NCBI GenBank assembly: GCA_902514625.1
Contig: CABXRK010000012.1
Span: forward strand, 1 to 46,087
From: an uncultured Bacteroidota bacterium
Lineage (GTDB): Bacteria > Bacteroidota > Bacteroidia > Flavobacteriales > Flavobacteriaceae
Direction of reading: 5' to 3'
DNA length: 46,087 nt
A program made the position numbers and the translations under genes. The notes under the pieces were generated by a model. That model saw nothing but the letters and a program-made list of their open reading frames with translations, did not search any database and was not told the origin of the DNA. Of this stretch, positions 1 through 34,188 are shown piece by piece; position 1 is the first letter of the stretch; every line of letters starts with the position of its first letter.

Positions 1-62
1 AAATTGATTTATAAATAGCATCTATAATTTTCATGTCTTTTAATCCTTCCTCACCGTAAATA
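1..62 (-). pseudogene. Out-of-frame C-terminal tail of the Gfo/Idh/MocA gene, cut by window edge
   Basis: The minus strand below position 62 reads IYGEEGLKDMKIIDAIYKS in the frame displaced by one base from the upstream gene. It matches the expected C-terminal helix of this oxidoreductase family, and no stop occurs before the window edge. Removing one base from the seven-base A run (63-69 on the plus strand) joins it to the upstream frame as TKAKNIYGEEG. Seen in sequence; whether it is mutation, slippage or sequencing error cannot be told here. Confidence 0.7.
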
Positions 63-1097: not shown

Positions 1098-1144
1098 AAA
1101 TGATTATTTAATTTTAAAGTTAAAAAATAAGATCAATTTTCAAA

Positions 1145-1540: not shown

Positions 1541-1560
1541 TAAAAAAATTTAATATAAAT

Positions 1561-8628: not shown

Positions 8629-8654
8629 AATACTTTAATCTTTATTGTTCTATG

Positions 8655-11603: not shown

Positions 11604-11606
11604 CAC

Positions 11607-11833
11607 TTTGTGTATTAATATTTTATTTCATCTGAACTATACCGCGTAATTTTAGTACTAAAATTACGAATTTAATTAGTTATTTATCTTAAAATCAACA
11701 AATTGAATATTTGATCTTAATTCTATTTCTAAAAAAATAGACTAAAAAGTATTGACTTAAATAAATTAAATCAATTTAAAATCAGAAAAAAATCAATTTT
11801 TTTTTAGAATCAAATTGGAATTTGATTTCAGAA
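11607..11833. promoter_or_regulatory. AT-rich leader region of the surface-protein pair
   Basis: A gene-free stretch between the repeat-protein start and the end of the ParB-like gene. It holds a perfect 24-bp palindrome (annotated separately) and a short AT inverted repeat, ATCAAATT-GG-AATTTGAT, at about 11809-11826 just past the ParB-like stop. I found no convincing Bacteroidota -33/-7 promoter match. Confidence 0.4.
11645..11668. promoter_or_regulatory. Perfect 24-bp palindrome upstream of surface-protein operon
   Basis: The half-site CGTAATTTTAGT is followed directly by its reverse complement, with no mismatch and no spacer. It lies 42-65 bp upstream of the ATG of the repeat protein. It is more GC-bearing at its ends than the surrounding AT sequence. 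It could be an operator for a dimeric regulator, or a leader hairpin if transcribed. Confidence 0.5.
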
Positions 11834-12574
11834 CTATTTTTTAGGTTTGTATTTCTGTTCCGCTTCCAAATAAATATCTTTTAAATATTCTAATTGATCG
11901 TTCTCTTTATTGAAATTTTGAACATAATTATCCGTACACATTATTGCAATTACTTCTTCATCTAAATCATCATAATCATAATTCATGATTTTAATGGCTC
12001 TAGCAATTTTAGCAGAAAAAGGACTTGCCTTCATTTTATGTTTACTCATCTCATTTAATGAATCATAAACTTGTTCCCCTCTTGTTCTATCTAATTTATA
12101 GGTAAGGTTTTTTAATTTTTTTAGCAATCCCGCATGAGATCTTCCCTCCATTAATATTTCAAGAGCAGTAGTTGGACGAAGTTTTTTTGCTGTTTGCTGT
12201 TCCCATCTATTAGCTATTTTTATAGCCTCAAGAACATCGAGATTTCCACTCTCAGCAGCATAATTAGCAAAATCCATTGCGTTCCATTTAGAACCTGTAT
12301 TATTAATTTCAATGGTATGTTTATCATCCTTCCAAGTTTTACTTATTATATAAGGGATTTTATACCCTAATCTATTTAAAGCCCAGAACCGATGCTGTCC
12401 ATCAACAATTTGTTTCTTTTGATTAACAATAATTGGTATTTGAACCCCATTATCACGAATACTTTTTTCAAGTTTTTTAACAATTCTCTCGTTAGGCTCC
12501 CTATTGGTGTCTAAAAATTTGAATGATTTATAATCATCAGTAACATCAACTTTAAATTCGTTCTTTAAATCCAT
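11834..12574 (-). CDS. ParB-like N-terminal domain protein (orphan)
   Basis: 246 residues. The ParB/Srx-type nucleotide-binding fold is at about residues 18-105, with DTNREPNERIVKKLEKSI, IVNQKKQIVDGQHR (GQHR at 59-62) and FWALNRLG. The remaining two thirds are alpha-helical and Lys-rich, without a clear helix-turn-helix that I recognise. Stand-alone ParB-domain proteins of this kind are common in phages, plasmids and accessory islands and may be CTPases, nucleases or DNA-binding proteins. No ParA partner is present, so a partition role is unlikely. Three 11-bp repeats lie 53-85 bp upstream of the start. Function unknown. Confidence 0.7.
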   Translation of the reverse strand: MDLKNEFKVDVTDDYKSFKFLDTNREPNERIVKKLEKSIRDNGVQIPIIVNQKKQIVDGQHRFWALNRLGYKIPYIISKTWKDDKHTIEINNTGSKWNAMDFANYAAESGNLDVLEAIKIANRWEQQTAKKLRPTTALEILMEGRSHAGLLKKLKNLTYKLDRTRGEQVYDSLNEMSKHKMKASPFSAKIARAIKIMNYDYDDLDEEVIAIMCTDNYVQNFNKENDQLEYLKDIYLEAEQKYKPKK

Positions 12575-12626
12575 TTTTTAATCTATTTTTAAAAATATGA
12601 TGTAAATATATAAAATATTATTTTAA

Positions 12627-12659
12627 TTTTCCAATTATTTTCCAATTATTTTCCAAATT
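12627..12659. repeat. Three 11-bp tandem repeats upstream of ParB-like gene
   Basis: Unit TTTTCCAATTA is repeated twice exactly (12627-12637, 12638-12648), then once imperfectly (12649-12659, TTTTCCAAATT). The 11-bp spacing is close to one helical turn, so the copies face the same side of the DNA. They lie 53-85 bp before the ParB-like start. Possible binding sites for that protein or another regulator. Confidence 0.5.
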
Positions 12660-12768
12660 TTTTCTAAATCAATATTATTTATATTATTTTTTTTTCTATT
12701 ATTTTTCAAAAATTGCAAGAAAAAGGGGGAGAGAAAAGCTGTTTACACACCAAAAAAAAAAGGAGTAT

Positions 12769-13719
12769 TTACCAGGCTTTTAAGCCTAAAAGCTTTTCTC
12801 CTAATAAACTTAAATCAGCAGTTTTATATTTTAATTTTTCCAAATTTCTGGGATCACCAGGAAAGGCATAACCCTCTGGAGCTATTCTATTTTTCCAAGA
12901 ATTAATTCTCCAATTTCTTAAATCAATATTTTCTTCCTGAGAAGGCATCATTGAAATGTACTGCGCTATTCTTACCTTATCCTCACTAATATTAGGTCTA
13001 ATCCCATGAGGTTCTAAGCTATTAAAAATAAGCAAATCCCCTGCCTCAAGACCCACTTTAACAATCTTATCCTCCAAACCAGTAACATCAGGAATAAATG
13101 GATCATGATCATTTTTTTGAGTTTTTATCCATTGATCAAAATTTCTATAAAGCCAAGGAATACATTGAAACCCCCCCATATTTTGATCCATTTGATCTGA
13201 AAGAGCTAAAACGCCTTGTACGTTTTGAGGTTTTGTTTTAGGATCGTAATCCCAATGAATAAAACCCTTATATTCAAAACCAGGCCTTAATGGAAAATTT
13301 AAATTTGCCCTATCGATTGAAACCCATAATTTTTCAGACCCCCATATATCAACAAAAGCATCATATATTTTCTGATTTTGCCGATTTTCCCATAATAATT
13401 GATGGTTATAAACCTCAACCATACCAGTTCCTGCAAGCTCTTTCATTTTCATTTCAGCTCTGGGAGGAGTATACCATGAATCTTTATTTATAGGATTTTT
13501 TTCCTCGAATTCCCATAAAAATGAAGCTGTTTTATCAGCTTGTTCTTTCGAAATAACATTTTTAATTACAACATAACCATTATAAATCCAAAAATCCCAC
13601 TGCTCTTCAGTCAAACACCTTAGGGGCTCTTCATTTAATCTTTTATTAAGAGTTTTTTTGCTTGTTTTTGCAGTAGATGGATTACCAGGAATATCTTTAT
13701 GATCATTATAAGGAGTCAT
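12769..13719 (-). CDS. Phytanoyl-CoA dioxygenase (PhyH) family protein
   Basis: A 316-residue Fe(II)/2-oxoglutarate oxygenase of the PhyH family. The double-stranded beta-helix metal motif is GFIHWDYDP (His155, Asp157). The distal His is in EPHGIRPN (about His238), and an Arg in KVRIAQY probably binds 2-oxoglutarate. It has no signal peptide, so it is cytoplasmic. Its ATG abuts the stop of the upstream esterase (13719/13720), implying one transcript and coupled translation. PhyH enzymes hydroxylate many small molecules; the substrate here is unknown. A role in a demethylation-like or deoxygenation step of an unusual sugar is only a guess from context. A second, unrelated-looking PhyH gene sits at the other end of the island. 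Confidence 0.8.
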   Translation of the reverse strand: MTPYNDHKDIPGNPSTAKTSKKTLNKRLNEEPLRCLTEEQWDFWIYNGYVVIKNVISKEQADKTASFLWEFEEKNPINKDSWYTPPRAEMKMKELAGTGMVEVYNHQLLWENRQNQKIYDAFVDIWGSEKLWVSIDRANLNFPLRPGFEYKGFIHWDYDPKTKPQNVQGVLALSDQMDQNMGGFQCIPWLYRNFDQWIKTQKNDHDPFIPDVTGLEDKIVKVGLEAGDLLIFNSLEPHGIRPNISEDKVRIAQYISMMPSQEENIDLRNWRINSWKNRIAPEGYAFPGDPRNLEKLKYKTADLSLLGEKLLGLKAW

Positions 13720-14630: not shown

Positions 14631-16103
14631 TTATTTTTCTCCTTTGAAAATAAAAATCCCTAAAAACCCAACAAAAAATATAGTCCCCGTTCCTATTACT
14701 ATAGTCAAGTAGGAATGAAATGGATTTTGAAAACCAAAGACCTGATCAAAAGCATTAGGAATACTTAAAAGTAAAATAACCAATACCCCCATTATAGTTC
14801 CAATTATTGGAGTTATTTTACTATTTAATTTTGGAACTAATCCGATCAAAAATAGACCAAGCATTCCTCCACTGAAAACTGAAGCTAATTCCCACCATGC
14901 ATCTAGAGCACTTTTAACATTAATCATAGCCAATGCAATCAGTATTCCAGAAAAAGAGATCAAAATTGTAGAAAAATACAATACTCTCATTTGCGTTTTT
15001 TCATCTCCAAGATTTTTAAAAAACCGATTATAATAATCGATTAAAATAACGGTAGCAGAACTATTATAACTAGTTGAAAGAGTGCTCATTCCAGCAGAAA
15101 AAATTGAAGCAATCAATATTCCCGTCAATCCTTGAGGTAAAACATTTACAATAAAATAAGGGAAAACCTTATCTGGGGATCCAATTATAGATGAAGGTAA
15201 AAGTCCCGTATTACTATAATAACTATAAAGAGCAGTTCCTATAAATAAAAAAAGAGCGGATACTGGAACATAAATTAATCCCCCTAGAAGAGCAGAAATC
15301 TTTGCTTTTTTTTCAGAATCTGTCAACAGATATCTTTGGATATAATTTTGATCTATACCAAAATTCTGAAGGTTTATAAAAAGACCATAAACCAAAACTA
15401 CCCAAAAAGTCGGTGATGATAGTTCAATCCCAAAGCTTCCTAGGCTAAATTTATCATCATCTAAAGCTATTTCCATTATTTCTTTTGCTCCTAAATCAGA
15501 GCCTAAAAGGATATATAAGAGGCATATTACTGCTCCAATAATTAAAATAATACCTTGAATTGCATCTGTCCATACGACTGCTTGAATGCCTCCAAAAACA
15601 GAATAAACCGCAACAATTAATCCAGTCAAAATTATTACAGCAGATAAATTAAACCCCATAAAAGTATTCAAAGTAAGACCCAATAAATAAAGAATCGTCC
15701 CGATCCTCATCACTTGAGTCAACAGATAACAAAACGATACATATATCCTTGCCCATGTTCCAAATTTTTGTTCCATATAGGCATATGCAGAAGCACTATT
15801 TATCCTTCTATAAAGGGGAACAAAATATTTTACTGCTATTAAAGAAGCAATTGGAAGAGACAAACTAAAAACAAAGGCGTTCCAATTCGAACCGTAAGCA
15901 CTTCCAGGAAGAGCCAAATAACTTATACTGCTAACAAAAGTTGCAAAAATTGAAAAAGAAACTACCCAACTAGGAATTCTACCACCAGCCAGAATAAACA
16001 TTTTTGAAGTTTTATTTTTGTTAAAAAAAGAAACTCCAAAAAAACAAATTCCAGCCACATAAGTGAAAAAAATAATAACATCAATTGTTGCAATAGATCC
16101 CAT
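14631..16103 (-). CDS. Sodium:solute symporter (SSS family)
   Basis: 490 residues from ATG at 16101-16103; an in-frame TTG directly upstream is an alternative. About 13 hydrophobic segments are visible. SSS features include the N-terminal DVIIFFTYVAGICFFG, GGRIPSWVVSFSIFATFVSSISYLALPG, and IVAVYSVFGGIQAVVWTDAIQG, the last typical of sialic-acid/galactose/inositol-type SSS carriers in catabolic islands. It is an inner-membrane Na+-coupled importer, probably for the mono- or disaccharide released by the neighbouring enzymes. Eight bp (16104-16110 region) separate it from the sulfatase upstream, so the two are co-transcribed. Confidence 0.9.
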   Translation of the reverse strand: MGSIATIDVIIFFTYVAGICFFGVSFFNKNKTSKMFILAGGRIPSWVVSFSIFATFVSSISYLALPGSAYGSNWNAFVFSLSLPIASLIAVKYFVPLYRRINSASAYAYMEQKFGTWARIYVSFCYLLTQVMRIGTILYLLGLTLNTFMGFNLSAVIILTGLIVAVYSVFGGIQAVVWTDAIQGIILIIGAVICLLYILLGSDLGAKEIMEIALDDDKFSLGSFGIELSSPTFWVVLVYGLFINLQNFGIDQNYIQRYLLTDSEKKAKISALLGGLIYVPVSALFLFIGTALYSYYSNTGLLPSSIIGSPDKVFPYFIVNVLPQGLTGILIASIFSAGMSTLSTSYNSSATVILIDYYNRFFKNLGDEKTQMRVLYFSTILISFSGILIALAMINVKSALDAWWELASVFSGGMLGLFLIGLVPKLNSKITPIIGTIMGVLVILLLSIPNAFDQVFGFQNPFHSYLTIVIGTGTIFFVGFLGIFIFKGEK

Positions 16104-16110
16104 CAAAATT

Positions 16111-17913
16111 TTATATTCTTTTTAACATTAACAATCTGAAATCCATCAATTCTTCTCCCTTCTTTTTTAAACCTTTTAATACTAATTTTCCCTTCCCTTT
16201 CTTCAAATTTATAGTTCCCATTTCTAAAGGAATAAAATCTTTAACATAAGACTCAATCCTTGGAGACCTATCCTTTTCAGATCCATATTCTTTAGGATCA
16301 TAGTATTCATTAATGCTGTTTTTTAATCTGGAATCCAAAAAACTCAGTTCGATCTCAGAACCGATAGCATCCTTAGAACATGTGTAATACAAACTTACTT
16401 GGAAATTGCCTTCCTCAATCACTTCAGCTTCCCATGTAATTGAATCATCTATATTGATCCAATTGGTCATATAACTACAATTTGGATAATAATTAGATCT
16501 TTTTATTGCTCCATTTGGCGTCGCATCTCTAGCTGGAATCTGCGTATATTTCATTTTAGGGTGCCCAATAATAAATGATCTTTTAGCTGAATTATCTAAT
16601 TCACTCAAAACTTCATCTTCCCATTTAATTTTAGCTTCATTCATTTTATTATAAACCTCTGGGTGTTCTTTAGAAACATCTTTTAACTGAAATGGATCCT
16701 CTTTCATATTAAAAAGAAGTCCTTTATTATCTAGCCTGAAATTTTGACTTCTTACACTCAATTTTTTTCTCCAATAATTATAAATATATCTGTCCTCCCA
16801 TGCTAGATCATTTTCATAAATTAATTTTTTTAAACTTATTCCATCTAATTCATTTTTAGGTTCTGATTTTATGCCTATTAAGTCTTTTAGTGTAGGTAAT
16901 AAATCAATTCCGCTAGCAATTTTTTTTACTGTTTTACCATTAGGCATATTCCCTTCCCAATAAAAAATCATTGGAGATCTGACTCCGCCCTCATCAGTAG
17001 ATCCTTTAATCCCTTTCATGTTTCCATTCCATCTATGACCATTTGGTCCATTATCGGATAAAAAAATAATAATAGTATTTTTTTCTATTTCTAAAGACTT
17101 TAAAGCATCAACTATTCTTCCAATGTTCCAATCGATATTCTCACACATTGCAAGAGCTGCTCTTGTATGATCTAAACCTTTTTTTAAATTTATCCCTGAG
17201 TACTTGTCGTTAGAAGGTTTTGAAAATGTCCCCTCTTGAGATATCTCTTTATTTTTAAATTTATCCCAAAAGCGATCAGGGACCTGCATAGGGCTGTGTG
17301 GAGTATTAAATGGTAAAAAAAGAAAAAAAGGTTTGTTTTGATTCTTTTTTATGAAATCTATCCCATGATCAGTAAAATCATCTATAACAAATCCTTTACC
17401 CTTTACTAATTTACCATTATGCTCAAGAACTGGATCAAAATAATTTCCCCAATGACCAGAACAAAAACCATAAAAATCGTCGAATCCTCTAGTATTTGGA
17501 TGGTAAGGAGCTTGCATCCCATTATGCCATTTGCCGTAAGCAGCAGTTTGATATCCGGATTTTTTTAAAACATTTGCAATAGTCTCCTCATCTAAATTTA
17601 TTCTTTCTCCACCCTTAGAAACATCATAAACTCCTGTTCTAACATGATGTCGCCCTGTTAAAATTTCCGCTCTAGTTGGAGAACAAACTGGACTCACAAA
17701 AAAACGATCAAATTTTACACCATTAACTGCTAAATAGTCAATGTTTGGAGTTCCTAGATCTCTGTTACCGTTAACGCTTAAATCTCCCCAACCCTGATCA
17801 TCAGTTAAAATCAAAATAACATTAGGCTTTTCAATATTTTTTTTAATGTTACATGAAAATAAAATAAAAAATGCCGTGCTAATTAATAACTTGAAAATTA
17901 GGTTCGTTCTCAT
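16111..17913 (-). CDS. Sulfatase lipoprotein with C-terminal beta-sandwich (S1 family)
   Basis: A 600-residue formylglycine sulfatase. The lipobox is LFSC (Cys21). Metal ligands are LTDDQGWGD (Asp38, Asp39), and the signature is VCSPTRAEILTGR with catalytic Cys77 (C-x-P-T-R). A distal SDNGPNGH (Asp287, Asn288) is present. Residues about 470-600 form an extra beta-rich, carbohydrate-binding-like domain (WEAEVIEEGNFQVSLYYTC, KGKGKLVLKG). The enzyme should hydrolyse sulfate esters of a polysaccharide at the cell envelope. Cys must be converted to formylglycine by a maturase that is not in this window. It is first gene of a minus-strand operon with the symporter, and is divergent from nagA across 46 bp. 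Confidence 0.92.
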   Translation of the reverse strand: MRTNLIFKLLISTAFFILFSCNIKKNIEKPNVILILTDDQGWGDLSVNGNRDLGTPNIDYLAVNGVKFDRFFVSPVCSPTRAEILTGRHHVRTGVYDVSKGGERINLDEETIANVLKKSGYQTAAYGKWHNGMQAPYHPNTRGFDDFYGFCSGHWGNYFDPVLEHNGKLVKGKGFVIDDFTDHGIDFIKKNQNKPFFLFLPFNTPHSPMQVPDRFWDKFKNKEISQEGTFSKPSNDKYSGINLKKGLDHTRAALAMCENIDWNIGRIVDALKSLEIEKNTIIIFLSDNGPNGHRWNGNMKGIKGSTDEGGVRSPMIFYWEGNMPNGKTVKKIASGIDLLPTLKDLIGIKSEPKNELDGISLKKLIYENDLAWEDRYIYNYWRKKLSVRSQNFRLDNKGLLFNMKEDPFQLKDVSKEHPEVYNKMNEAKIKWEDEVLSELDNSAKRSFIIGHPKMKYTQIPARDATPNGAIKRSNYYPNCSYMTNWINIDDSITWEAEVIEEGNFQVSLYYTCSKDAIGSEIELSFLDSRLKNSINEYYDPKEYGSEKDRSPRIESYVKDFIPLEMGTINLKKGKGKLVLKGLKKKGEELMDFRLLMLKRI

Positions 17914-17959: not shown

Positions 17960-19042
17960 ATGGAAATTAGTTATCATATTAAAAAACTTCATACTGGCGA
18001 AAAAATTATTAATAATGTTTGCGTTAAAACTACTAATTCCAAAATTACTAATTTAGATTTTGAATCTTTTGAAGAAAAAAAATCCTATGAATATATGATT
18101 CCGGGATTTATAGATCTTCAAATTTATGGTGCCGATGGCTCTCTATTAATGGAGGAGAGTAATGCAAAAACTATAAAGAAAATACATTTACATAATCTTA
18201 AAAGCGGGACCTTCTTTTTTCAACCCACTATTGCTTCCATTTCTTTTAGTAAAATTATTGAATGTATTAATGCAGTTAAAGATTATAAATCAAAAGGGGG
18301 TGAAGGTTGTATTGGCCTCCATGTTGAAGGACCATGGATTAATCCTAAAAAAAATGGAGCTCATTCATTAAAACACATTCATTCTCCTAAAATAAAAGAA
18401 GTTGAAAAAATATTATCTCATGCTAATGGAAACATAAGTATGATTACATTGGCTCCAGAGGTTGTAAATGATGAAATTATTGATTTAATTCAAAGTGAAG
18501 GAATCATAATCTCTATTGGACATTCAAATTTAGATTTCAAAACTGCAAAAAAATATATTAATAGAGGACTTAATGCTGCAACTCATTTATTTAATGCTAT
18601 GCCGAGCTTTCACCACAGAAATCCTGGATTAGTATTAGCGATTTTGAATAACAAAAAAATCTATTCTAGTATTATTTGTGATGGTCACCATGTTGATTTT
18701 AAAATGATAAAGCATGCCTTCTCTTTAAAAAAAGATAAACTTTTCTCAATAACAGATGCCGTTACAGAATCTTCAAAAGGAGAATATACTCATAAACTTA
18801 AAGGTGAAATATATCAAAACAATGGCATTTTATCAGGCTCATCGATCACAATGCATGAGAGTTTTAAAAATCTAATTCAAAAAGTTGGTTTATCTTTTAA
18901 TGATGCAGTAAATATGTGTTGTTCAACACCTTCAAAAATTATAAGAAAGAAAATTCTAATACCCCCTTTGGATAAAAAAAATAATTATTCTTATAACATT
19001 TTAGATAAAGATTATAATTTGATCAAAAATTCTTTCAATTAA
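17960..19042 (+). CDS. nagA: N-acetylglucosamine-6-phosphate deacetylase
   Basis: A 360-residue amidohydrolase that removes acetate from GlcNAc-6-P to give GlcN-6-P. Motifs: GFIDLQIYGADG (no HxH, like E. coli NagA with its QLNG), LHVEGPWINPKKNGAH (Glu123 metal ligand), IGHSNL (His188), ATHLFNAM (His209), CDGHHVD (241-246) and SITDAV (Asp266 catalytic). It therefore looks like the single-metal E. coli type and all key residues are present. No signal peptide; cytoplasmic. It is the only plus-strand gene in this part of the island and shares the short divergent region with a sulfatase. Its presence suggests that an N-acetylated hexosamine is part of the substrate. NagB is not in the window. Confidence 0.88.
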   Translation: MEISYHIKKLHTGEKIINNVCVKTTNSKITNLDFESFEEKKSYEYMIPGFIDLQIYGADGSLLMEESNAKTIKKIHLHNLKSGTFFFQPTIASISFSKIIECINAVKDYKSKGGEGCIGLHVEGPWINPKKNGAHSLKHIHSPKIKEVEKILSHANGNISMITLAPEVVNDEIIDLIQSEGIIISIGHSNLDFKTAKKYINRGLNAATHLFNAMPSFHHRNPGLVLAILNNKKIYSSIICDGHHVDFKMIKHAFSLKKDKLFSITDAVTESSKGEYTHKLKGEIYQNNGILSGSSITMHESFKNLIQKVGLSFNDAVNMCCSTPSKIIRKKILIPPLDKKNNYSYNILDKDYNLIKNSFN

Positions 19043-19299: not shown

Positions 19300-20622
19300 C
19301 TACAAAGATTTTTCCCACTTAATTTTTTTATATACTTCTAATCCGGCCATTAACTCATTATAGTTTTTTGTTTGGGAATCATCTAATTCATTTTTATTTA
19401 GAGGAGTTTTTTCATGAAAATCATTTTTAACATTAAAGAACCTGCCATCTCCATATAATTTATAAGATTCATTTCTTGTCCATTCAATCGGGTTATTATC
19501 TTCAACCTTTATATAGGGCCTGGGAAAATACCAGGAGTAAATAAATTTTTTATTTGATTGATTTTTACCAAGAATTTGAGGTAAAAAACTAACTCCATCA
19601 ACATAACTTTCTTTTGGAAAATCGGTCCCAGTTGCTTCGCAGATAGTAGGCAAGAAATCACTAAAATCAACTAGACTAGAATTCACTGATCCTTCTTTTA
19701 CTTTTCCTTTCCAAGAAGCAATAAGAGGCACATGAGTCCCATTATCAGTTGTTCTGCCTTTACCCCATATAATTTCACCATTTATAGTTTCAGAAACAAT
19801 TGGTGAATCGGTTCCATTATCCCCAGTAAAAATAATTAAAGTGTCCTCTCGAAGCTTAAGATTATCTAATTCCTGGACTATTCTTCCTATGGAATGATCC
19901 ATATAAGAAACCATATCAGGAAAGTATTTTGCATCGCCTTTATAAGTCTTAGATCCCATGTCACTTGGATCCCAATCACTTGAATGAGGCGTCGGATCAA
20001 AAGGACAGTGTGTGAGTATCATCGGATAATAAACTAAAAATGGTTGTTCTTTATTTCGACTCATAAAATCATTAATATAGTCAACTATTAAATCTGTAGA
20101 ATACTTTCCTTCATTTTCCTCATATTTTTCCCCGTTTATTTCTAATTCAGGATTAACATAACGTTTATCTAATCCAGTGGAATCCCTTCCTTTTGTCTTA
20201 ACCTGCCACAAGATATGTTCATCAAATCCAAAATGTTTTGGCAAATCAGGAGTTTTGTCTAACTGCAACTGCCATTTTCCAGCGATTAAAGTTTTATACC
20301 CATTCTTCTTTAATAATTGACTAAAAACAACTTCTTTTTTATCTAAAATTCCAAAGTCAACATAATTTTTTTTATTAGTCTTACCAGTCATTATTCTTAC
20401 TCTAGATGGAGTACATATTGGTTGCGAATGACAATTTTCAAACCTTATTCCATTCAAAGCTAATTTATCAAGATTAGGAGTCTGATATTTACCTCCATTT
20501 ACATTTAAACATTCATAGCCTAGATCATCGGCCATAATTAAAATTATATTTGGCTTAGACCTTTCTTGAGAGCAAGAAAAATTAAATAAAAGAAAGATTA
20601 ATAAAATTAATAATCTTACCAT
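19300..20622 (-). CDS. Sulfatase lipoprotein, short form
   Basis: A 440-residue formylglycine sulfatase. The lipobox ends NFSC (Cys17). Metal site MADDLGYE (Asp32, Asp33); signature PICTPSRVRIMTGK with catalytic Cys70 (C-T-P-S-R74). A distal FTGDNGTDSP supplies Asp/Asn. It is shorter than its two neighbours and lacks a C-terminal sandwich, so its specificity probably differs. It follows the third sulfatase with a 5-bp gap, indicating one transcript. Substrate position is not deducible by eye. Confidence 0.9.
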   Translation of the reverse strand: MVRLLILLIFLLFNFSCSQERSKPNIILIMADDLGYECLNVNGGKYQTPNLDKLALNGIRFENCHSQPICTPSRVRIMTGKTNKKNYVDFGILDKKEVVFSQLLKKNGYKTLIAGKWQLQLDKTPDLPKHFGFDEHILWQVKTKGRDSTGLDKRYVNPELEINGEKYEENEGKYSTDLIVDYINDFMSRNKEQPFLVYYPMILTHCPFDPTPHSSDWDPSDMGSKTYKGDAKYFPDMVSYMDHSIGRIVQELDNLKLREDTLIIFTGDNGTDSPIVSETINGEIIWGKGRTTDNGTHVPLIASWKGKVKEGSVNSSLVDFSDFLPTICEATGTDFPKESYVDGVSFLPQILGKNQSNKKFIYSWYFPRPYIKVEDNNPIEWTRNESYKLYGDGRFFNVKNDFHEKTPLNKNELDDSQTKNYNELMAGLEVYKKIKWEKSL

Positions 20623-20627
20623 AAAAA

Positions 20628-22409
20628 TTAATTTGGCCTGGGAATTGCTCCTGTTTTTCTAGCCCATTCCATCCACATTTGAGACATTACTTTAACCTTT
20701 TCAGGATGCTTATTGGAAATATCGTTTGTCTCAGTTCTATCAATTTCCATATCAAATAACTCCCATAGCTCCTGGTCTAATTTATCAATTTTATCCCATT
20801 GGCCAGTCATTTTCAAATCTTTACCTGCTTTTGAAACTAATTTCCACTTACCCATTCTCACTGCTCTATTCCCTGAGTGTTCCCAATAAAGAGCTTCTCT
20901 ATTTAAGTTACTATTAGTAAAAGCAGGAACTAAACTTTTCCCTTCCATTGGTGTTATTGTATTTCCTTTATAATTTCTTGGATATTTTGAGCCACTAACT
21001 TCAACACACGTAGCCATTATGTCAATAAGATGAGAAGGCTGCCTTCTAAAATCTCCATTTGCTTTTATAGTATTTGGCCAATGTACAATTAAAGGAGTGG
21101 CTATTCCTCCTTCATGAACATAATGTTTATATTCTCTAAATGGAGTATTGCTGGCGTTTGCCCATGAAGGGCCATATGCAGAATAACTTTCAGGCCCTCC
21201 TGCCAAAGCATTTTTCATTAATCTTACAGGTTCCCCCTCACGAGTAATTGTTGGGATCATTTTAGTTTGAATTGCCAATGGATCCATTGGTTTTTGACTA
21301 ACATCAGGAACTTGTCTGTCTTTGATCCAATCCAATTCTTCTGAACAGGCTCCATTATCTTGCAAATAAAATATTAAAGTATTTTCATACTCTCCCTTTT
21401 CTTTAAGACTATTAATAATTTTACCTATTCCATTATCCATTCTATCAATCATGGCAGCATATACTTCCATATTTCTAATCTCCCAATCTCTATCTTCTAT
21501 CTCTTCAGACCAATCTTTTACATTTATGTCTCTAGAGGTAAGTTCCCACTGATCTTTAATTATTCCCATCTCCTTCATTCTTGAAAATCTTTCTTTCCTA
21601 ATTTGGTCCCATCCCTTATCATATTTTCCTTTATATTTTTCAATATCTTCGGATAGAGCATGAAGCGGCCAATGTGGAGCAGTATAAGCCACATACATAA
21701 AAAAAGGGTTTTTATTTGAGTTTTGGTTAATGAACTTTACGGCATAATCCGTTACTTTATCTGTAAAATAAAAATCTTTTGTTGGCGCGATATATTCATT
21801 ATCAATTGCCAATGATCTAGGATCAAAAAAACTTCCAGCCCCAGAAATCATTCCAAAAAATTTATCAAATCCTCTTTGAACAGGCCAATTTGATTTATTT
21901 GGGTTTTTAATTCCTTCCGGAGAATCATCATATGGGGTAATATGCCATTTTCCAGATAAATATGTAGAATATCCTGATTCCTTTAAGACTTCAGCAATAG
22001 TTACAGCGTTGTTGCTTAAATCTCCTCTGAAAGCTGGAGTTCCCCTATCTCCACTATCTGCCATACCTCCCATTCCAGCTTGATGAGCGTAAAGCCCTGT
22101 AAGTAAAGATGCTCTAGTAGGACAACATCTTGATGTGTTATAAAACTGAGTAAATCTCAATCCTTTCATCGCTAAATCATCAATATTAGGAGTGCTGATT
22201 TCTCCTCCATAAGAAGAAATATCTGAATACCCCATGTCATCTGACATTATCAAAATAATGTTAGGTTTATCTATGAATTGATTAGATGAACAATAAAAAA
22301 ATACTGAACAACTTACTAGAACAAAAATTAATTTTATAATTTTTAAAATAACTACGGTTTTTATTAAACCTAAATTTAATAAAATTTTTCTAAAACTAGA
22401 GTTGTTCAT
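20628..22409 (-). CDS. Arylsulfatase-type sulfatase lipoprotein
   Basis: A 593-residue sulfatase of the arylsulfatase A-like group. The N-terminus is long, and a lipobox VFFYC (Cys40) follows a hydrophobic segment. Metal site MSDDMGYSD (Asp57, Asp58); signature SRCCPTRASLLTGLY with formylglycine precursor Cys95 and a second Cys at the x position (C-C-P-T-R99). The C-terminus has the EHSGNRAVRMGKWKLV block typical of large arylsulfatases. It acts in the envelope on sulfated glycans. The first 14 bp overlap the end of the ADP-ribosylglycohydrolase-like gene upstream, so the two are translationally linked. Confidence 0.92.
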   Translation of the reverse strand: MNNSSFRKILLNLGLIKTVVILKIIKLIFVLVSCSVFFYCSSNQFIDKPNIILIMSDDMGYSDISSYGGEISTPNIDDLAMKGLRFTQFYNTSRCCPTRASLLTGLYAHQAGMGGMADSGDRGTPAFRGDLSNNAVTIAEVLKESGYSTYLSGKWHITPYDDSPEGIKNPNKSNWPVQRGFDKFFGMISGAGSFFDPRSLAIDNEYIAPTKDFYFTDKVTDYAVKFINQNSNKNPFFMYVAYTAPHWPLHALSEDIEKYKGKYDKGWDQIRKERFSRMKEMGIIKDQWELTSRDINVKDWSEEIEDRDWEIRNMEVYAAMIDRMDNGIGKIINSLKEKGEYENTLIFYLQDNGACSEELDWIKDRQVPDVSQKPMDPLAIQTKMIPTITREGEPVRLMKNALAGGPESYSAYGPSWANASNTPFREYKHYVHEGGIATPLIVHWPNTIKANGDFRRQPSHLIDIMATCVEVSGSKYPRNYKGNTITPMEGKSLVPAFTNSNLNREALYWEHSGNRAVRMGKWKLVSKAGKDLKMTGQWDKIDKLDQELWELFDMEIDRTETNDISNKHPEKVKVMSQMWMEWARKTGAIPRPN

Positions 22410-24411
22410 ATATCTCTAACTCAGTAATACTAGTAAAAAAAACATTTTTACTGCCATGATGATAATGATCAACCCCTCCGGCATCTCCTATGATTCTTAT
22501 CCCGCTTGTTTTAACTTCATCAAATTGAATTCGATAACTCATAAAATGAGCTTTATTGATGAAATTGTTTGAAAAATCAAATTTTGGTAGAATCTGAATA
22601 GGTGTTTTTATTTTTTCCCAAACCCCTTTTTTATTAATAATTTCAACTTTTAAATTTTTGAACCATCCACCATTTTCTTCCATACTTCCTGTTGTAAAAA
22701 CAATATTTCCAATATTAACAGGGGTTTCCCACTTATATCCATAGTAATCTTCATGAGGAGTTTTAGCGTTATCGATACTATAAAAAACAGATCTATCACC
22801 ACCTATTTTGCCATCATTTATTATTGAGATATTATCAGAAAAAAGATTTTTGCCAACCGTAATCCACATATTATCCCTTCTAACTTTATCTGTTTTATAA
22901 ACGGATGAAATTATAATATTTTTTTCTTGAGCTAAATTTTTTTCAAAAACAATAAAATTAAAAATAGTTGATTTTTCTTGATTCTTATAAATTGCTTTAA
23001 CATTAACTGAAAACTCTCCACTTTTAGTAGGTATACCATTAAAAACTCCTTTCTCAAAAGTAATTCCATCCGGAAGGGCTTTAGAGTCAATCTCCCATTT
23101 TATTAATCTATTTGAATATGAACTAGTAATTGAATATGAATTCGCCTTTCCTTTATTTAAAATTACATAAGGGATTTTGGCGATCTCTAAATTAGGCTCA
23201 AATTCAGCTGATTTTTTTATTTTATAAAAAACTTTATCTTCTTTTTTGATAATTTCACCTCCTTTAGATAAAATGATTTTTTCAGCTTGTAATATAGTCT
23301 TTTTAATAATTTCCGAAATCTTAACATCCGGAAGATCATATCTGGAAATATTTTTGTAATAATCATTAAAGGGCAATTCCCACCCAGAATTTTTGATTGG
23401 AAATAATAACCTTTTAGGTATTCCTTTAGTTCCATTTATTATACCTAAAAGCCCTGACATAGTTGCTGTTTGATTATCAGCATCAAATCCTAATCCAGAA
23501 GCTATATCTAAAGTGGTTAAAAAATCTCCATTTCCATATAAAAGTGCCAAAATACCGCAAGCCCCATTTAAATTGGCATTCCAAATAGTTTTAGTTTCAA
23601 TTGATTCATTAACATAAAACTTATTTGATAATTCTAATCTAGCTTTTTTCCAATCTTTAATATTTGGGAATTTGTTATATATGTTTTGAACCTCTATTAT
23701 GGTTTTATAAAAAACCCCATCTTTAGGTAAAGCATTTAATCCAATTTTTATTAATTCATTAATATCTTTTTCAAAAAAGGCAGCTGAATACATTGCCGCA
23801 TAATGAATTGTCGGTTCGACACCCCAATCATCATTTGTTATTTTTGCAGCCCATTTTGATTTTTCACATGCATAATTTATCATGCCAGGAGATGTAACAG
23901 CCCATATTTCATTAACTAATTGAGGGTCAATTTGAAACCAGTGAGGATTATACTTTTTCGAACCAGACAATGGAGGTGATATTCCATTTTTCATAGCGGC
24001 TAATGCTGCTCTATTAGCAAGCCAAACCCTATCTCTTATGTGATAAGTCCAAGCTTTTGATAATTCCAAATAAGTTGGTTCAATTCCAAATTTTTCCATC
24101 TGTAAAAGATACATATATTCAATATCTGTATCATCATCTGAAAAGGCTCCGTTAATTTCTTCCATTAATTTTAAATGATAACTTCCATATTCCAAATTCA
24201 TTAAACTATCTGGTCTTGGATTATCTACATATTGATTTTCATGGGGAAGTCCATAAATATTACCAACAAGTTGTCCAAGCCATGAAGCGTATACCATATC
24301 ACTGTAGTCAGATTTTGATAATAAAAAATATTCATCATGATTAAATTCTTTGCAAGAACCTAAAAAATTAAAAACAAAAAGAACAATACTTATGTTGAAA
24401 ATTTTTTTCAT
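22396..24411 (-). CDS. ADP-ribosylglycohydrolase-fold lipoprotein with Ig and discoidin-like tails
   Basis: 671 residues. The lipobox is FLGSC (Cys20). Residues 35-345 are an ADP-ribosylglycohydrolase-type all-alpha domain: WLGQLVGNIYGLPHE, the acidic metal motif GAFSDDDTDIEY (Asp92-94, Asp96), and the second motif GFDADNQTATMSGLLG (Asp310, Asp312), which bind two divalent ions in the family. Residues about 405-490 look like a putative Ig domain (LPDGITFEKGVFNGIP), and 495-671 like a discoidin/F5-8-type domain (GGWFKNLKVEI, SGIRIIGDAGG). A lipoprotein with glycan-binding-like tails, sandwiched between fucosidase and sulfatase, argues for an extracytoplasmic glycosidase rather than reversal of protein ADP-ribosylation. 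That function is inference. Confidence 0.8.
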   Translation of the reverse strand: MKKIFNISIVLFVFNFLGSCKEFNHDEYFLLSKSDYSDMVYASWLGQLVGNIYGLPHENQYVDNPRPDSLMNLEYGSYHLKLMEEINGAFSDDDTDIEYMYLLQMEKFGIEPTYLELSKAWTYHIRDRVWLANRAALAAMKNGISPPLSGSKKYNPHWFQIDPQLVNEIWAVTSPGMINYACEKSKWAAKITNDDWGVEPTIHYAAMYSAAFFEKDINELIKIGLNALPKDGVFYKTIIEVQNIYNKFPNIKDWKKARLELSNKFYVNESIETKTIWNANLNGACGILALLYGNGDFLTTLDIASGLGFDADNQTATMSGLLGIINGTKGIPKRLLFPIKNSGWELPFNDYYKNISRYDLPDVKISEIIKKTILQAEKIILSKGGEIIKKEDKVFYKIKKSAEFEPNLEIAKIPYVILNKGKANSYSITSSYSNRLIKWEIDSKALPDGITFEKGVFNGIPTKSGEFSVNVKAIYKNQEKSTIFNFIVFEKNLAQEKNIIISSVYKTDKVRRDNMWITVGKNLFSDNISIINDGKIGGDRSVFYSIDNAKTPHEDYYGYKWETPVNIGNIVFTTGSMEENGGWFKNLKVEIINKKGVWEKIKTPIQILPKFDFSNNFINKAHFMSYRIQFDEVKTSGIRIIGDAGGVDHYHHGSKNVFFTSITELEIYEQL

Positions 24412-26323: not shown

Positions 26324-27790
26324 ATGAAATTCAAAAAAAATCAATTCAAAAATTCTTCAAGAAGAAGCTTCATTAAAAAAGGAATAATTGCTTCATCATT
26401 CTTTATAATACCTAGAAATGTTTTGGGTGGAAAAGGTTATACAGCCCCAAGTGATCAATTAAATCTTGCTGCAATTGGTTCCGGAGGAAAAGGTCATAGT
26501 GATATTATTAATGCTTCAGTTAATGGAAGAGAAAAAGTTTCAGCATTATGTGATGTTGATTTTTCAGGAAGTGCCTCAAAAACAATTACAAAGTTTCCTA
26601 AAGCTAAGCTTTATTCTGATTTTAGAAAGATGCTAGATAAAGAAAAAAATCTTGATGCAATAACTATTTCTACTCCCGATCATATTCATGGTCCGGCAGG
26701 AGTTTATGCAATGGAAAGAGGTAAACATGTATATATTCAAAAACCTATAACCCATAATATTCGTGAGGCGAGATTACTTACCGAAATGGCAAGAGAAAAA
26801 AAGGTTGTCACTCAAATGGGTAATCAAGGTGGGTCTAATCCCTTGCTTGAAATGGTTCAGAAATGGGTGGATTCTGGAATAATTGGAAAAATCTCTAAAG
26901 TTAATGTATGGACAAATCGCCCAGTTTGGCCTCAAGGAATTAAAATCCCCAATTCAAATGCTAGTTTAAAACCTAATGCCTTAAATTGGGATCTATGGCT
27001 AGGCCCTGCTAAAGAAAAACCATTTACTCCTAACATGCATCCATTTAATTGGAGAGGTTGGTGGGAATATGGAACTGGTGCACTTGGCGACGTAGGATGC
27101 CATTTAATAGATATCCCTTTCAGAACTTTAAATCTCCATTACCCAAAAGATGCCGAATGTAGCGTTGGAAGTGTATATACTAAAATGTGGACTCCAGAAT
27201 ATATCCCTGAAGGGTGCCCCCCTTCTTCATTAATTACTCTCCACTTTAAAGAAACCTCAAAAAGTAAATCCCCGATTGAATTAACTTGGAGTGATGGTGG
27301 TATTAGACCTCCACGTCCTGAAATAATTCCTGCAAATTCAGATATTGGAGGGCCAAATAGCCAAAATGGTGTTTTAATGATTGGTGAAAAAGGAATTATT
27401 TCTACAAACATTAATGATAGTTCCCCTCTAACTCCAAAACTTTATCTCAACGATGGTTCATATGAGTTTGGTCCTGAAATAGAAAATAATCCTGAACCAG
27501 AATATGGTCATCAAAGAAAATGGGTTGATGCTTGTAAAGCTGGTTTTAATAGTAAAGAGCATTTGTCTTTGACCTCCTCTTTCGATTATGCAGGTCCAAT
27601 GACTGAAACTGTTTTAATGGGTAATCTAGCTATCAGAAGTTATATGCTTAGAAAACTTAACAAGAAAAATAGATATGAATTCTTTGCTAGAAAAAAATTG
27701 CTTTGGGATGGAAGTAATATGAAAATAACAAATATAGAAGAAGCAAATCAATTTGTTACTAGACAATATAGAGAAGGTTGGGAAATATGA
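26324..27790 (+). CDS. Tat-exported Gfo/Idh/MocA family oxidoreductase
   Basis: 488 residues. A twin-arginine signal (SSRRSFIKKG, residues 11-20, then IIASSFFIIP) points to export of the folded, cofactor-bound protein. The Rossmann fold starts at LAAIGSGGKGHSDI. The lysine motif appears as IQKPITHN in place of the more common EKP. C-terminal segments such as WDLWLGPAKEKPF and GALGDVGCHLID match the large periplasmic subgroup found in polysaccharide islands of Bacteroidota and Planctomycetota, several of which act as glycosidases or 3-keto-sugar enzymes. It leads a two-gene unit with the TIM-barrel protein 10 bp downstream. Confidence 0.88.
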   Translation: MKFKKNQFKNSSRRSFIKKGIIASSFFIIPRNVLGGKGYTAPSDQLNLAAIGSGGKGHSDIINASVNGREKVSALCDVDFSGSASKTITKFPKAKLYSDFRKMLDKEKNLDAITISTPDHIHGPAGVYAMERGKHVYIQKPITHNIREARLLTEMAREKKVVTQMGNQGGSNPLLEMVQKWVDSGIIGKISKVNVWTNRPVWPQGIKIPNSNASLKPNALNWDLWLGPAKEKPFTPNMHPFNWRGWWEYGTGALGDVGCHLIDIPFRTLNLHYPKDAECSVGSVYTKMWTPEYIPEGCPPSSLITLHFKETSKSKSPIELTWSDGGIRPPRPEIIPANSDIGGPNSQNGVLMIGEKGIISTNINDSSPLTPKLYLNDGSYEFGPEIENNPEPEYGHQRKWVDACKAGFNSKEHLSLTSSFDYAGPMTETVLMGNLAIRSYMLRKLNKKNRYEFFARKKLLWDGSNMKITNIEEANQFVTRQYREGWEI

Positions 27791-33000: not shown

Positions 33001-33406
33001 TTAATTCAATTTGATTTTTTCCAATTTTAATTTTTTTCCTTTTATATAAAACCCCTATTGACTTTTTAAAAGCTTTCTTACTCATTTTTAATTTTGATCT
33101 AATCTCTTCCGGCGAGCTTTTATCAGATAATCTTATACTCCCTTTTAACTTTAATTGATTAGTAATAAATTCACAATAATGATCAATTGAATTTTTAAAC
33201 CCTTGAGGTGTTAACGATAAATCAATTTTACCATCTTCTCTTACTTTTTTAATATATGCAGTTATTTTTTGGTTCTTTTTAAGTACTCGAAACACCTCAT
33301 TTTTATATATTAAACCTTCAAACTTATCTTCGATTCTAGCAACAAGTCCTATTTTAATTTCTCTTTCAATTTTAATATCTACCTTATCCCCCTCTTTAAA
33401 TTCCAT
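32993..33406 (-). CDS. Short CvfB-like S1 RNA-binding protein
   Basis: 137 residues. An S1-type OB fold comes first (about 5-60: GDKVDIKIEREIKIGLVARIED, FEGLIYKNEVFR, KVREDGKIDLSL), and a winged-helix-like end follows (SPEEIRSKLKMSKKAFKKSIGVLYKR, then IKIGKNQIELI). This is the C-terminal half of CvfB/YitL proteins, which usually run to about 280 residues with more S1 domains. The protein is thus half-length but has intact ends. Its ATG overlaps the stop of the HAD gene (TAATG), so translation is coupled. RNA binding is likely; target unknown. Confidence 0.75.
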   Translation of the reverse strand: MEFKEGDKVDIKIEREIKIGLVARIEDKFEGLIYKNEVFRVLKKNQKITAYIKKVREDGKIDLSLTPQGFKNSIDHYCEFITNQLKLKGSIRLSDKSSPEEIRSKLKMSKKAFKKSIGVLYKRKKIKIGKNQIELIR

Positions 33407-34188
33407 TATTTGACCATTAAATTATTTTCTTCAATAAAATTAGGAAGAACCGCAATTGATTTAATACAAAAATCTGGATTTATTAAAGAGTTCTTAAAAA
33501 TATTCTCTCTATATTTTCCTGTTTTTACTAAAAATGTTTTAAATCCCATGTTATTCCCCCCTTGGATGTCATTTATTAAATCATCCCCTATCATAGCTAT
33601 TTCATCTGATAAACATGAAAAACTTTGTATTGCCATTTCAAAAAATGTAGAATTAGGTTTCCCTACAACAATTGAATTTGTTTCAGTAGCATGTTCTAAC
33701 CCAGCAATAAAAGCTCCAATATCTATAGTTAATCCATTATTTGTCTGAAAATATCTTCCTTTATGTAGAGCAATTAATTTTGAACCTTCTAATATTTGAT
33801 TCATTAAATCATTCATTAAATCATAACTCCAACAATCACCAATATCTCCAATAATAATAGCTTCAGGATTAAAATTTGTTATATTAAATTGCAGATAATC
33901 ATCCATCCCCTCCCTAGAAAGAATTAATCTACACGATTTTAATCCCATTTTCTTTATTAATAATACCCCTGCATAATTCGCGCTAATAAATTCTTCTTCT
34001 TTAACGTCTAACCCAATCTTTTTCATTTTTATTGCCAATTTCCTTCTTGAAAGAGTCGTATTATTAGTGATAAATTTATATTTTACTTTATTCTTCTTTA
34101 ACCAATAGATTGTTTCATTAGCACCATCTATTAATTTATTTTTTACATAAAAAACTCCATCCAAATCAAATAGAAATGCCTTAATCAT
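33406..34188 (-). CDS. HAD-IIA (NagD-like) sugar/nucleotide phosphatase
   Basis: A 260-residue HAD-superfamily hydrolase, subfamily IIA. Motif I FLFDLDGVFY (nucleophile Asp8, acid Asp10), motif II ITNNTTLSRR, motif III Lys in VVGKPNSTFF and motif IV MIGDDLINDI are all intact. The C2-type cap between motifs II and III identifies the NagD/phosphoglycolate-phosphatase-like branch. It dephosphorylates small phosphates in the cytoplasm, substrate undetermined. It is the first gene of a pair with the CvfB-like gene and is divergent from the serine hydrolase. Confidence 0.85.
   Translation of the reverse strand: MIKAFLFDLDGVFYVKNKLIDGANETIYWLKKNKVKYKFITNNTTLSRRKLAIKMKKIGLDVKEEEFISANYAGVLLIKKMGLKSCRLILSREGMDDYLQFNITNFNPEAIIIGDIGDCWSYDLMNDLMNQILEGSKLIALHKGRYFQTNNGLTIDIGAFIAGLEHATETNSIVVGKPNSTFFEMAIQSFSCLSDEIAMIGDDLINDIQGGNNMGFKTFLVKTGKYRENIFKNSLINPDFCIKSIAVLPNFIEENNLMVK

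What the first reader, a model, noticed from the sequence alone, without database searches (positions are those of the whole stretch)
22396..24411. ADP-ribosylglycohydrolase-fold lipoprotein with glycan-binding-like tails inside a fucosidase-sulfatase operon
The protein keeps the acidic metal motifs of ADP-ribosylglycohydrolases, but it is lipid-anchored, carries Ig and discoidin-like domains, and is overlapped by a sulfatase gene and preceded by a fucosidase gene. Its second metal motif (DADNQT) is a variant of the usual DADT. Protein ADP-ribose removal outside the cytoplasm makes little sense here; an unrecognised glycosidase class on this fold is a strong possibility.
Basis: partly seen in the sequence, partly recalled or inferred. 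Interest (0 to 1): 0.75.

Follow-up and report, generated by a model that had tools for sequence, protein, structure and literature searches.

The report
Exported ribosidase-like enzyme beside sulfatases
A marine bacterium appears to export an enzyme built like those that strip ADP-ribose from proteins, but its relatives and gene neighbours suggest it instead trims a sugar, most likely ribose, from a sulfated, fucose-bearing glycan.

Summary
The gene is real: 671 aa, minus strand, 22396-24411. It has a lipobox, a complete ADP-ribosylglycohydrolase (ARH) domain, an Ig-like domain and a galactose-binding-type C-terminal sandwich. It lies between a GH29 fucosidase and three sulfatases; the association recurs in 4 of 4 genomes of its genus. 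All five metal/catalytic acids are invariant in 27 relatives. 'DADNQT' is a subfamily signature, not an oddity. The main clue lay outside the finding. Six of nine close relatives with readable context outside the genus sit in ribose-type loci (ribokinase and/or RusT-like transporter, SusC/D). Three of four genomes of the genus carry a transporter-ribokinase pair on another contig, beside a formylglycine-generating enzyme (3 of 3) and L-fucose catabolism genes (2 of 3). Best reading: an exported metal-dependent ribosidase working in a fucose-sulfate glycan locus. Against it: the window's own 63%-complete genome lacks the pair (also at the syntenic site) and FucP; three other relatives sit beside GH13-type genes, without that transporter in their genomes; and a tree with those three leaves the direction of the move open. 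No activity is shown.

The parts
22396..24411 (-). Gene of the ARH-fold lipoprotein, 671 aa
24352..24363 (-). Lipobox LGSC, residues 17-20
23242..24333 (-). ARH-fold catalytic domain, residues about 27-390
   Evidence: Z 26.2 to ARH3 6g1q, 300 residues, rmsd 3.3
24238..24240 (-). Glu58, aligned with the catalytic Glu of the ARHs; invariant in 27 of 27
24130..24135 (-). Asp93-Asp94 (first metal motif, S-D-D-D-T); invariant in 27 of 27
23476..23484 (-). Asp310-x-Asp312 (second metal motif, D-A-D-N-Q-T); both Asp invariant in 27 of 27
22942..23202 (-). Ig-like domain, residues about 404-490
22399..22941 (-). C-terminal galactose-binding-type beta sandwich, residues 491-671
   Evidence: Z 11.2 to BgaA carbohydrate-binding modules; part of it at low pLDDT
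24425..26230 (-). GH29 alpha-L-fucosidase, 13 bp upstream
20628..22409 (-). Sulfatase 1 (nearest solved chain 7all, arylsulfatase, E 1.2e-116)
19300..20622 (-). Sulfatase 2
16111..17913 (-). Sulfatase 3
17960..19042 (+). N-acetylglucosamine-6-phosphate deacetylase (NagA)
   Evidence: TIGR00221 over its cut-off
14631..16106 (-). Sodium:solute symporter
26324..27790 (+). Gfo/Idh/MocA-type oxidoreductase next to the fucosidase gene, also in L002, L007 and L057

Best explanation
The protein is an exported, metal-dependent glycosidase of the ARH fold, most likely a ribosidase. It would remove ribose residues from a fucosylated, sulfated glycan at the cell surface, while the neighbouring GH29 enzyme removes fucose and the sulfatases remove sulfate. 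The Ig-like and galactose-binding-type tail would hold it on the polymer. It shares a clade with ARH proteins of ribose-type loci and probably came from such a locus. In three of the four genomes of the genus the released ribose could be imported by a RusT-like transporter and phosphorylated by ribokinase, both encoded on another contig. Shown by computation: fold, invariant acids, export-type N-terminus, locus association, shared clade, and the separate ribose-fucose-FGE cluster in three congeners. Inferred: the catalytic activity, the sugar, the linkage, the polymer, the substrate of the transporter and the direction of the gene's move.
For: (1) Fold and metal centre: AlphaFold2 model pTM 0.78, Z 26.2 to ARH3; E58, D93, D94, D310, D312 invariant in 27 of 27. 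(2) Six of nine close relatives with readable context outside the genus lie in loci with ribokinase and/or the RusT-like transporter, and all six have SusC/D (L003, L004, L005, L008, L039, L050; of the ARH in L008 only the first 209 aa are on the contig). (3) Trees: these proteins and the window's form one supported clade (9 rows 99/99; 12 rows 97/99). (4) In 299 genomes of the window's family the transporter (E <= 1e-50) occurs in 21, but in 9 of the 11 with an ARH match at E <= 1e-30; the two without it are 63% and 83% complete (Fisher p 3e-10, uncorrected for relatedness). It lies beside ribokinase in 19 of 21 loci. (5) Three of four genomes of the genus have the transporter-ribokinase pair, with a formylglycine-generating enzyme gene beside it and a mutarotase gene on the other side in 3 of 3, and an L-fucose gene set in 2 of 3. 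No FGE or FucP match was found around the pair in 20 other loci of the family. (6) Stretches around the metal motifs agree between the window and ribose-locus proteins at 0.65-0.76 mean identity, against 0.20 (Ig) and 0.33 (C-terminal) for the tail; five fixed differences in the ARH domain (three genus rows against five ribose rows). (7) Residues aligned with the pyrophosphate binders of ARH1/ARH3 differ. (8) YegU-type ARHs sit beside a transporter and/or a sugar kinase in 6 of 7 records looked at.
Against: The window's own genome has no match to the RusT-like transporter, only a distant ribokinase-family match (24% identity), and no FucP. Where its congener G686 has FGE - ribokinase - transporter - mutarotase, it has FGE - a 137-aa ORF - mutarotase. 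The genome is 63% complete, so the genes may lie elsewhere. Three close relatives (G879, G955, G962, one genus) have no ribose gene in the stretch held; two of them were shown to have GH13-type neighbours, and none of the three genomes has the transporter. With these three in the tree, the window's genus, the Flammeovirga ribose-locus protein and a group holding the other ribose-locus and the GH13-side proteins form an unresolved fork, so the tree alone does not show that a ribose locus was the source; the smaller tree had put Flammeovirga next to the genus at 84/84. The transporter's substrate is inferred: Pfam scores it best as Ureide_permease (71.0 bits) and also as Sugar_transport (38.6), both over cut-off; NCBIfam has no match over cut-off. 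NagA points to an amino sugar. No sulfated glycan with both fucose and ribose was confirmed in what I read; one review puts high ribose in diatom wall fractions down to intracellular contamination. Only 4 of the 20 other transporter loci have any ARH gene nearby.
Confidence: 0.45

Rival explanations
1. An exported ARH-fold glycosidase that acts on a sugar other than ribose (another furanose, or a fucose or amino-sugar unit of the sulfated glycan).
For: The immediate neighbours are a fucosidase, sulfatases and NagA. The window organism lacks the ribose pair. Three other close relatives have no ribose genes nearby and no such transporter.
Against: Stretches around the metal motifs are highly conserved with ribose-locus relatives. 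Congeners keep ribose-type uptake and kinase genes next to FGE and fucose genes.
Confidence: 0.3
2. An exported enzyme that splits ADP-ribose conjugates or other nucleotide-derived ribosides for ribose scavenging; its place beside sulfatases is incidental.
For: ARH fold. Nucleoside hydrolase genes occur in or near several ribokinase-transporter loci (annotated in L040; by similarity in L054, L105, L108, L111, L116, L121). YegU-type ARHs sit with nucleoside or cytosine permeases.
Against: Residues aligned with the pyrophosphate binders differ. A carbohydrate-binding-type tail is present. The gene is in the fucosidase-sulfatase cluster in 4 of 4 genomes.
Confidence: 0.16
3. A non-catalytic glycan-binding lipoprotein that keeps the fold only.
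For: Two accessory domains and no shown activity.
Against: All five acidic positions are invariant across 27 relatives.
Confidence: 0.09

Closest known systems
Rus ribose-utilisation loci of Bacteroidota (B. thetaiotaomicron BT2803-2809; passages of PMC12596196, and of PMC10434189)
   Same: Close relatives sit in loci of this gene grammar: ribokinase and/or RusT-like transporter with SusC/D. That some Rus loci hold ADP-ribosylglycohydrolase genes is recalled.
   Different: Here the ARH gene lies in a GH29-sulfatase locus without SusC/D or ribokinase; the transporter-kinase pair is on another contig in three congeners and not found in the window's own genome. The B. thetaiotaomicron list seen names ribokinase, SusC/D, a DUF4969 protein, a nucleoside hydrolase and a DMT permease, and no ARH.
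ARH1/ARH3/DraG ADP-ribosylhydrolases (PF03747)
   Same: Fold (Z 26.2 to ARH3) and the catalytic Glu plus the D-D and D-x-D acids.
   Different: Export-type N-terminus and extra domains; D-x-D-N in place of D-T-D-T or D-S-D-S; residues aligned with the pyrophosphate-binding Gly and His differ, on a remote alignment.
E. coli yegTUV (transporter - ARH - sugar kinase)
   Same: An ARH gene grouped with a transporter and a sugar kinase; seen also in Pantoea, Paraburkholderia, Rhizobium and Mesorhizobium records in varied order.
   Different: No leader or tail seen (the domain starts at the N-terminus); distant in sequence; substrate unknown to me.
Fucose-sulfate glycan loci (GH29 plus sulfatases) of marine Flavobacteriia (recalled as a type)
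   Same: GH29, three sulfatases, and in the same genus FGE and an L-fucose gene set.
   Different: An ARH-fold gene is part of the association; no SusC/D was found in the window.

Membership tests
PF03747 ADP-ribosylglycohydrolase superfamily | Sequence profile match over the whole domain | tested here: met
   93.2 bits against cut-off 26.2, model 1-287 of 287
PF03747 ADP-ribosylglycohydrolase superfamily | ARH fold | tested here: met
   Z 26.2, 300 residues, rmsd 3.3 to 6g1q
PF03747 ADP-ribosylglycohydrolase superfamily | Catalytic Glu and acidic ligands of the two-metal centre | tested here: met
   E58, D93, D94, D310, D312 invariant in 27 of 27
ADP-ribosyl-protein hydrolase (ARH1/ARH3/DraG function) | Pyrophosphate-coordinating Gly and His, reported as conserved in ARH1 and ARH3 | tested here: inconclusive
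   The His of the T-H motif aligns with N193, and the residues at the G-N-G motif with Y154-N155-P156. The alignment is remote (15% identity), P156 lies in a low-pLDDT stretch, and which Gly the paper means was not checked against the ARH1 sequence
ADP-ribosyl-protein hydrolase (ARH1/ARH3/DraG function) | Thr (ARH3) or Ser (ARH1) after the second D-x-D | tested here: not met
   Asn313 here; Asn in 20 and Cys in 7 of 27
ADP-ribosyl-protein hydrolase (ARH1/ARH3/DraG function) | Hydrolysis of ADP-ribose conjugates | not testable with these tools
   needs enzyme assays
Rus-type ribose-utilisation locus | Ribokinase and RusT-like transporter in the same locus | tested here: not met
   No family match in the window and not found in its 63%-complete genome; present on another contig in 3 of 3 congeners
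Rus-type ribose-utilisation locus | ARH component in one clade with those of such loci | tested here: met
   99/99 with 9 rows, 97/99 with 12 rows; three rows of that clade are not from ribose loci
Glycosidase acting on a glycan | Release of sugar from a glycan | not testable with these tools
   needs enzyme assays

The most novel reading that the evidence does not exclude
The ARH fold has given rise to an exported exo-ribosidase of complex glycans, and marine sulfated fucose-containing glycans carry ribose branches that are degraded by a GH29-ARH-sulfatase locus together with a separate ribose and fucose uptake cluster. Ribose reported in algal polysaccharide fractions would then be partly genuine and not contamination from cell contents.
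Probability: 0.28. Interest if true: 0.75.

Novelty: new variant of a known kind. Interest (0 to 1): 0.55.

Why it matters
ARH-fold proteins are named for ADP-ribose removal. The evidence here suggests that members with export-type leaders in Bacteroidota work in sugar harvest, so the name misleads. If the ribosidase reading holds, it would add a glycosidase type on this fold, predict a ribose-bearing sulfated fucose glycan in the sea, and explain why ribose-type uptake, fucose breakdown and sulfatase maturation genes are clustered in congeners. It can be tested with a few recombinant proteins and defined substrates.

Tried and rejected
phmmer of the protein against PDB chains gave only chance proteasome matches; the ARH relation needed profile and fold comparison. 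hhalign of the subfamily against YegU alone aligned only the C-terminal motif; a seven-sequence profile aligned the whole domain. Two scans of viral contigs found no relative. The idea that DADNQT is a private change was rejected. The idea of a classical SusC/D locus was not borne out: Pfam scans of the 28 window ORFs of at least 150 aa gave no SusC or SusD family, nor did the phmmer comparison; the 983-aa ORF at 8655-11606 had no family match at all and stays uncharacterised.

Papers. What I saw of searches were listings with titles and starts of abstracts: 1 of 1 paper; none; 20 of 22; 20 of 180; none; 30 of 33; 1 of 1; 15 of 57,695. None listed reports an ARH-fold enzyme acting on a glycan. 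The library lacks most subscription journals, so this is weak evidence of novelty. Searches for glycans with ribose, fucose and sulfate (20 of 22 listed, 3 of 3) led to passages only: PMC4584364 (ribose attributed to contamination), PMC12555021 (some cyanobacterial EPS can contain ribose and fucose), PMC6388578 (two strains that degrade sulfated polysaccharides did not grow on D-ribose). Passages only were also seen of PMC11992087 (nothing on ARH), PMC6309922, PMC12596196 and PMC10434189 (there an ADP-ribosylglycohydrolase gene is part of a hemin-uptake locus of Prevotella intermedia, a context unlike the one proposed here). Recalled and from no call: details of Glowacki 2020, the chemistry of poly(ADP-ribose) cleavage, and the general picture of marine fucose-sulfate loci.

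Rows set aside: L006 (3 kb contig) from the context count; L008 (ARH cut at 209 aa) from both trees; G879, G955 and G962 were not in the tree and were added, which used 28 rows, dropping nine of the 34. L109 (3.3 kb) was kept in the count of 20 although too short to show neighbours. The cross-table assumes that searches drew the same 299 genomes (same number, same handles). For the YegU-type records I looked at E. coli and at 6 of 88 plasmid records (25 were listed); one (L147) has no annotation and is the 1 of 7 not counted.
Full report
WHAT IS THERE. The reported ORF exists at the stated coordinates. Its product has a lipobox, a full-length ADP-ribosylglycohydrolase domain (Pfam 93.2 bits, cut-off 26.2), an Ig-like domain and a C-terminal beta sandwich. 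The AlphaFold2 model (12 sequences, mean pLDDT 76.9, pTM 0.78) aligns over residues 30-380 with ARH3 of Latimeria (Z 26.2, rmsd 3.3, 300 residues). Residues 405-490 align with Ig-like modules (Z 11.8) and 489-671 with carbohydrate-binding modules of the streptococcal beta-galactosidase BgaA (Z 11.2). Stretches 125-130, 148-152, 156-161 and parts of the C-terminal domain are at low confidence. The lipobox pattern was found in 3 of 9 long ARH proteins; the N-termini of the rest are hydrophobic by eye.

METAL CENTRE. In an alignment of 27 related ARHs from several subgroups, E58, D93, D94, D310 and D312 are invariant. Profile alignments to MJ1187 and DraG place them on the known motifs. A structural paper gives these as E...SDDT...DSDS (ARH1) and E...[TS]DDT...DTDT (ARH3) and names a Gly and a His, conserved in both, that bind the pyrophosphate (passages of PMC6309922). 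Here the second motif is D-x-D-N with no inserted residue; Asn occurs in 20 and Cys in 7 of 27. The T-H motif of ARH3 and YegU aligns with T192-N193, and their G-N-G or N-G motif with Y154-N155-P156. Position 193 varies in the family (N 11, A 8, S 5, H 1, C 1, I 1). The alignment is at 15% identity, so this is a hint against ADP-ribose as ligand and no more.

THE LOCUS. GH29 - ARH - sulfatase - sulfatase, with NagA, a third sulfatase and a sodium:solute symporter beyond, is seen in the window and in L007. L002 has the same set with a kelch-type gene between GH29 and ARH and a BNR-type gene before the symporter. In the fourth genome (G685) the set is spread over two contigs: one has GH29, a gene of similar size to the kelch gene, ARH and sulfatases; the other begins inside a second, diverged ARH copy and goes on to the symporter. 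So 4 of 4 genomes of the genus hold the association. The family is taken as Flavobacteriaceae from the titles of L002 and L007.

OUTSIDE THE GENUS. Full-length relatives are rare. (299 genomes of the family) has three full-length matches: own, G183, G047. (395 of the class, E <= 1e-40) has only the own one; two more matches cover the ARH domain only. (395 of the phylum, E <= 1e-60) has own, G879, G955 and G962, plus one domain-only match. Contexts could be read for nine outside the genus. Six are ribose-type: L003 and L008 (ribokinase, transporter, SusC/D), L004 (ribokinase, SusC/D), L005 (transporter, SusC/D), L050 = G047 (all), and L039 of Flammeovirga kamogawensis (annotated rbsK, GRP family sugar transporter, SusC/D). 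Two cautions: of the L008 protein only 209 aa are on the contig, and the proteins of L004 and L005 lack the Ig-like part. L003, L004, L005 and L050 carry two further ARH genes in tandem. The other three (G879, G955, G962, one genus) show no ribose gene in the stretch held; GH13-type neighbours were seen for G879 and G955, GH77 for G879, and the G962 stretch is only 6.9 kb; their genomes have no match to the transporter.

TREES. In a tree of 34 ARH domains the long proteins form a clade (9 rows, 99/99), with the window's genus beside the Flammeovirga protein at 84/84. That tree left out the three GH13-side proteins. With them (28 rows) the clade stands (12 rows, 97/99), but its base is an unresolved fork of Flammeovirga, the window's genus, and a group of the other ribose-locus proteins plus the GH13-side ones (85/76). 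So the window's protein is in one clade with ribose-locus proteins, two of the three branches hold ribose-locus members, and a ribose-locus origin is the simplest history, but it is not proven.

CO-OCCURRENCE. The transporter looks like the counterpart of RusT, the putative ribose transporter of the B. thetaiotaomicron Rus locus BT2803-2809 (passages of PMC12596196; a DMT permease in PMC10434189). Equating them is my inference from gene grammar; RefSeq calls the Flammeovirga and Parabacteroides proteins GRP family sugar transporters, Pfam scores the G183 one as Ureide_permease and Sugar_transport, and NCBIfam has no match over cut-off. The ribokinase of G183 is over the cut-off of TIGR02152. 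The transporter lies beside ribokinase in 19 of 21 loci; of the other two, one ends at a contig end and one has ribokinase farther off in the same locus. It occurs in 21 of 299 genomes of the family, but in 9 of 11 with an ARH match at E <= 1e-30 (p 3e-10), 14 of 33 at E <= 1e-20, 5 of 7 at E <= 1e-70, and 5 of 22 with weak matches only (p 0.01). The tests ignore relatedness and genome size. Only 4 of the 20 loci outside the genus have an ARH gene nearby (L050, L054, L056, L106).

THE SEPARATE CLUSTER. Three of the four genomes of the genus carry the transporter-ribokinase pair, on other contigs than the ARH gene. In all three the pair has a formylglycine-generating enzyme gene beside it and a mutarotase gene on the other side; the FGE-type R-G-G-S-F-L-C-x4-C motif is present in all four genomes. 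In two of three, L-fucose genes lie between mutarotase and transporter. For G183 the L-fucose dehydrogenase (NF052481) and FucP (TIGR00885) are over their cut-offs and the fuconolactonase and diketo-acid hydrolase matches are below theirs; those of G685 were identified by similarity to G183. The third genome (G686) has a fucose gene set on another contig. No FGE or FucP match was found around the pair in 20 other loci of the family, one of them only 3.3 kb long. So in this genus ribose-type uptake, fucose breakdown and sulfatase maturation are grouped, while GH29, ARH and sulfatases are grouped elsewhere. That is the main reason to think that one glycan supplies all three.

AGAINST. The window's own genome (63% complete) has no match to the transporter, only a 24%-identity ribokinase-family match, and no FucP. 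Its FGE and mutarotase are present, and where G686 has FGE - ribokinase - transporter - mutarotase it has only a 137-aa ORF between them. Loss, relocation to the missing part, or release of ribose for other cells are all possible; I cannot tell them apart. NagA suggests an amino sugar in the substrate. I found no defined glycan with sulfate, fucose and ribose; a review of diatom glycans attributes ribose to contamination.

MECHANISM. By analogy with ARH3, where the distal ribose hydroxyls contact the two metals, the sugar next to the scissile bond would be held at the metals, with E58 as the key catalytic acid. This is inference. The stretches around the motifs agree with the ribose-locus proteins at 0.65-0.76 mean identity, against 0.54 for the whole ARH domain, 0.20 for the Ig part and 0.33 for the C-terminal domain, with five fixed differences in the ARH domain (three genus rows against five ribose rows). 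That suggests the sugar at the metals is the same while the glycan-binding parts have diverged; catalytic stretches are generally conserved, so it is not proof.

WIDER PATTERN. YegU-type ARHs also sit with transporters and sugar kinases: E. coli yegTUV, Pantoea, Paraburkholderia, Rhizobium and Mesorhizobium have both; the L. plantarum stretch shows a permease only; one Vibrio record has no annotation. ARH as a sugar-salvage enzyme may be widespread.

VERDICT. Observation confirmed. Interpretation partly supported: glycan-related and probably a glycosidase, but most likely ribose-directed and akin to ARH proteins of a known type of ribose locus. No activity has been shown.

Noticed in passing
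L065 (G685:C39) 1-12869 and L057 (G685:C7): One genome of the genus carries a second, diverged ARH - sulfatase - sulfatase - NagA - sulfatase - symporter block, cut inside ARH by the contig end.
   Followed up: partly
L002:18337-19374, L065:8175-9209: A BNR_2 (sialidase-like) gene lies between the third sulfatase and the symporter in two congeners; none is at that place in the window.
   Followed up: partly
L002:8837-9817, L057:7115: A kelch-type gene (L002) lies between GH29 and ARH; a gene of the same length is at that place in L057.
   Followed up: no
window:1561-8628: A 2355-aa protein with C-type lectin matches and, at or below cut-off level, thrombospondin type 3 and type IX secretion tail matches lies near the locus.
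   Followed up: no
L106:9591-12902 (G238): Transporter, ribokinase and an ARH of another subgroup (about 450 aa) are adjacent, so the ribose link is not limited to the long clade.
   Followed up: partly
L121 (G094:C9:38500-58400): A nucleoside hydrolase - ribokinase - transporter group is directly followed by a sulfatase-like gene, with more sulfatase-like genes upstream: another possible ribose-sulfate link without an ARH gene seen.
   Followed up: no
window:43037-44350: A phage-integrase-type tyrosine recombinase gene lies about 9 kb beyond the last gene shared with the congeners (HAD gene, 33406-34188).
   Followed up: no
window:26324-28832: A MocA-type oxidoreductase (below the cut-off of a glycoside 3-dehydrogenase family) and a xylose-isomerase-like gene beside the fucosidase, also present in L002, L007 and L057; they may act on the same glycan.
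   Followed up: no
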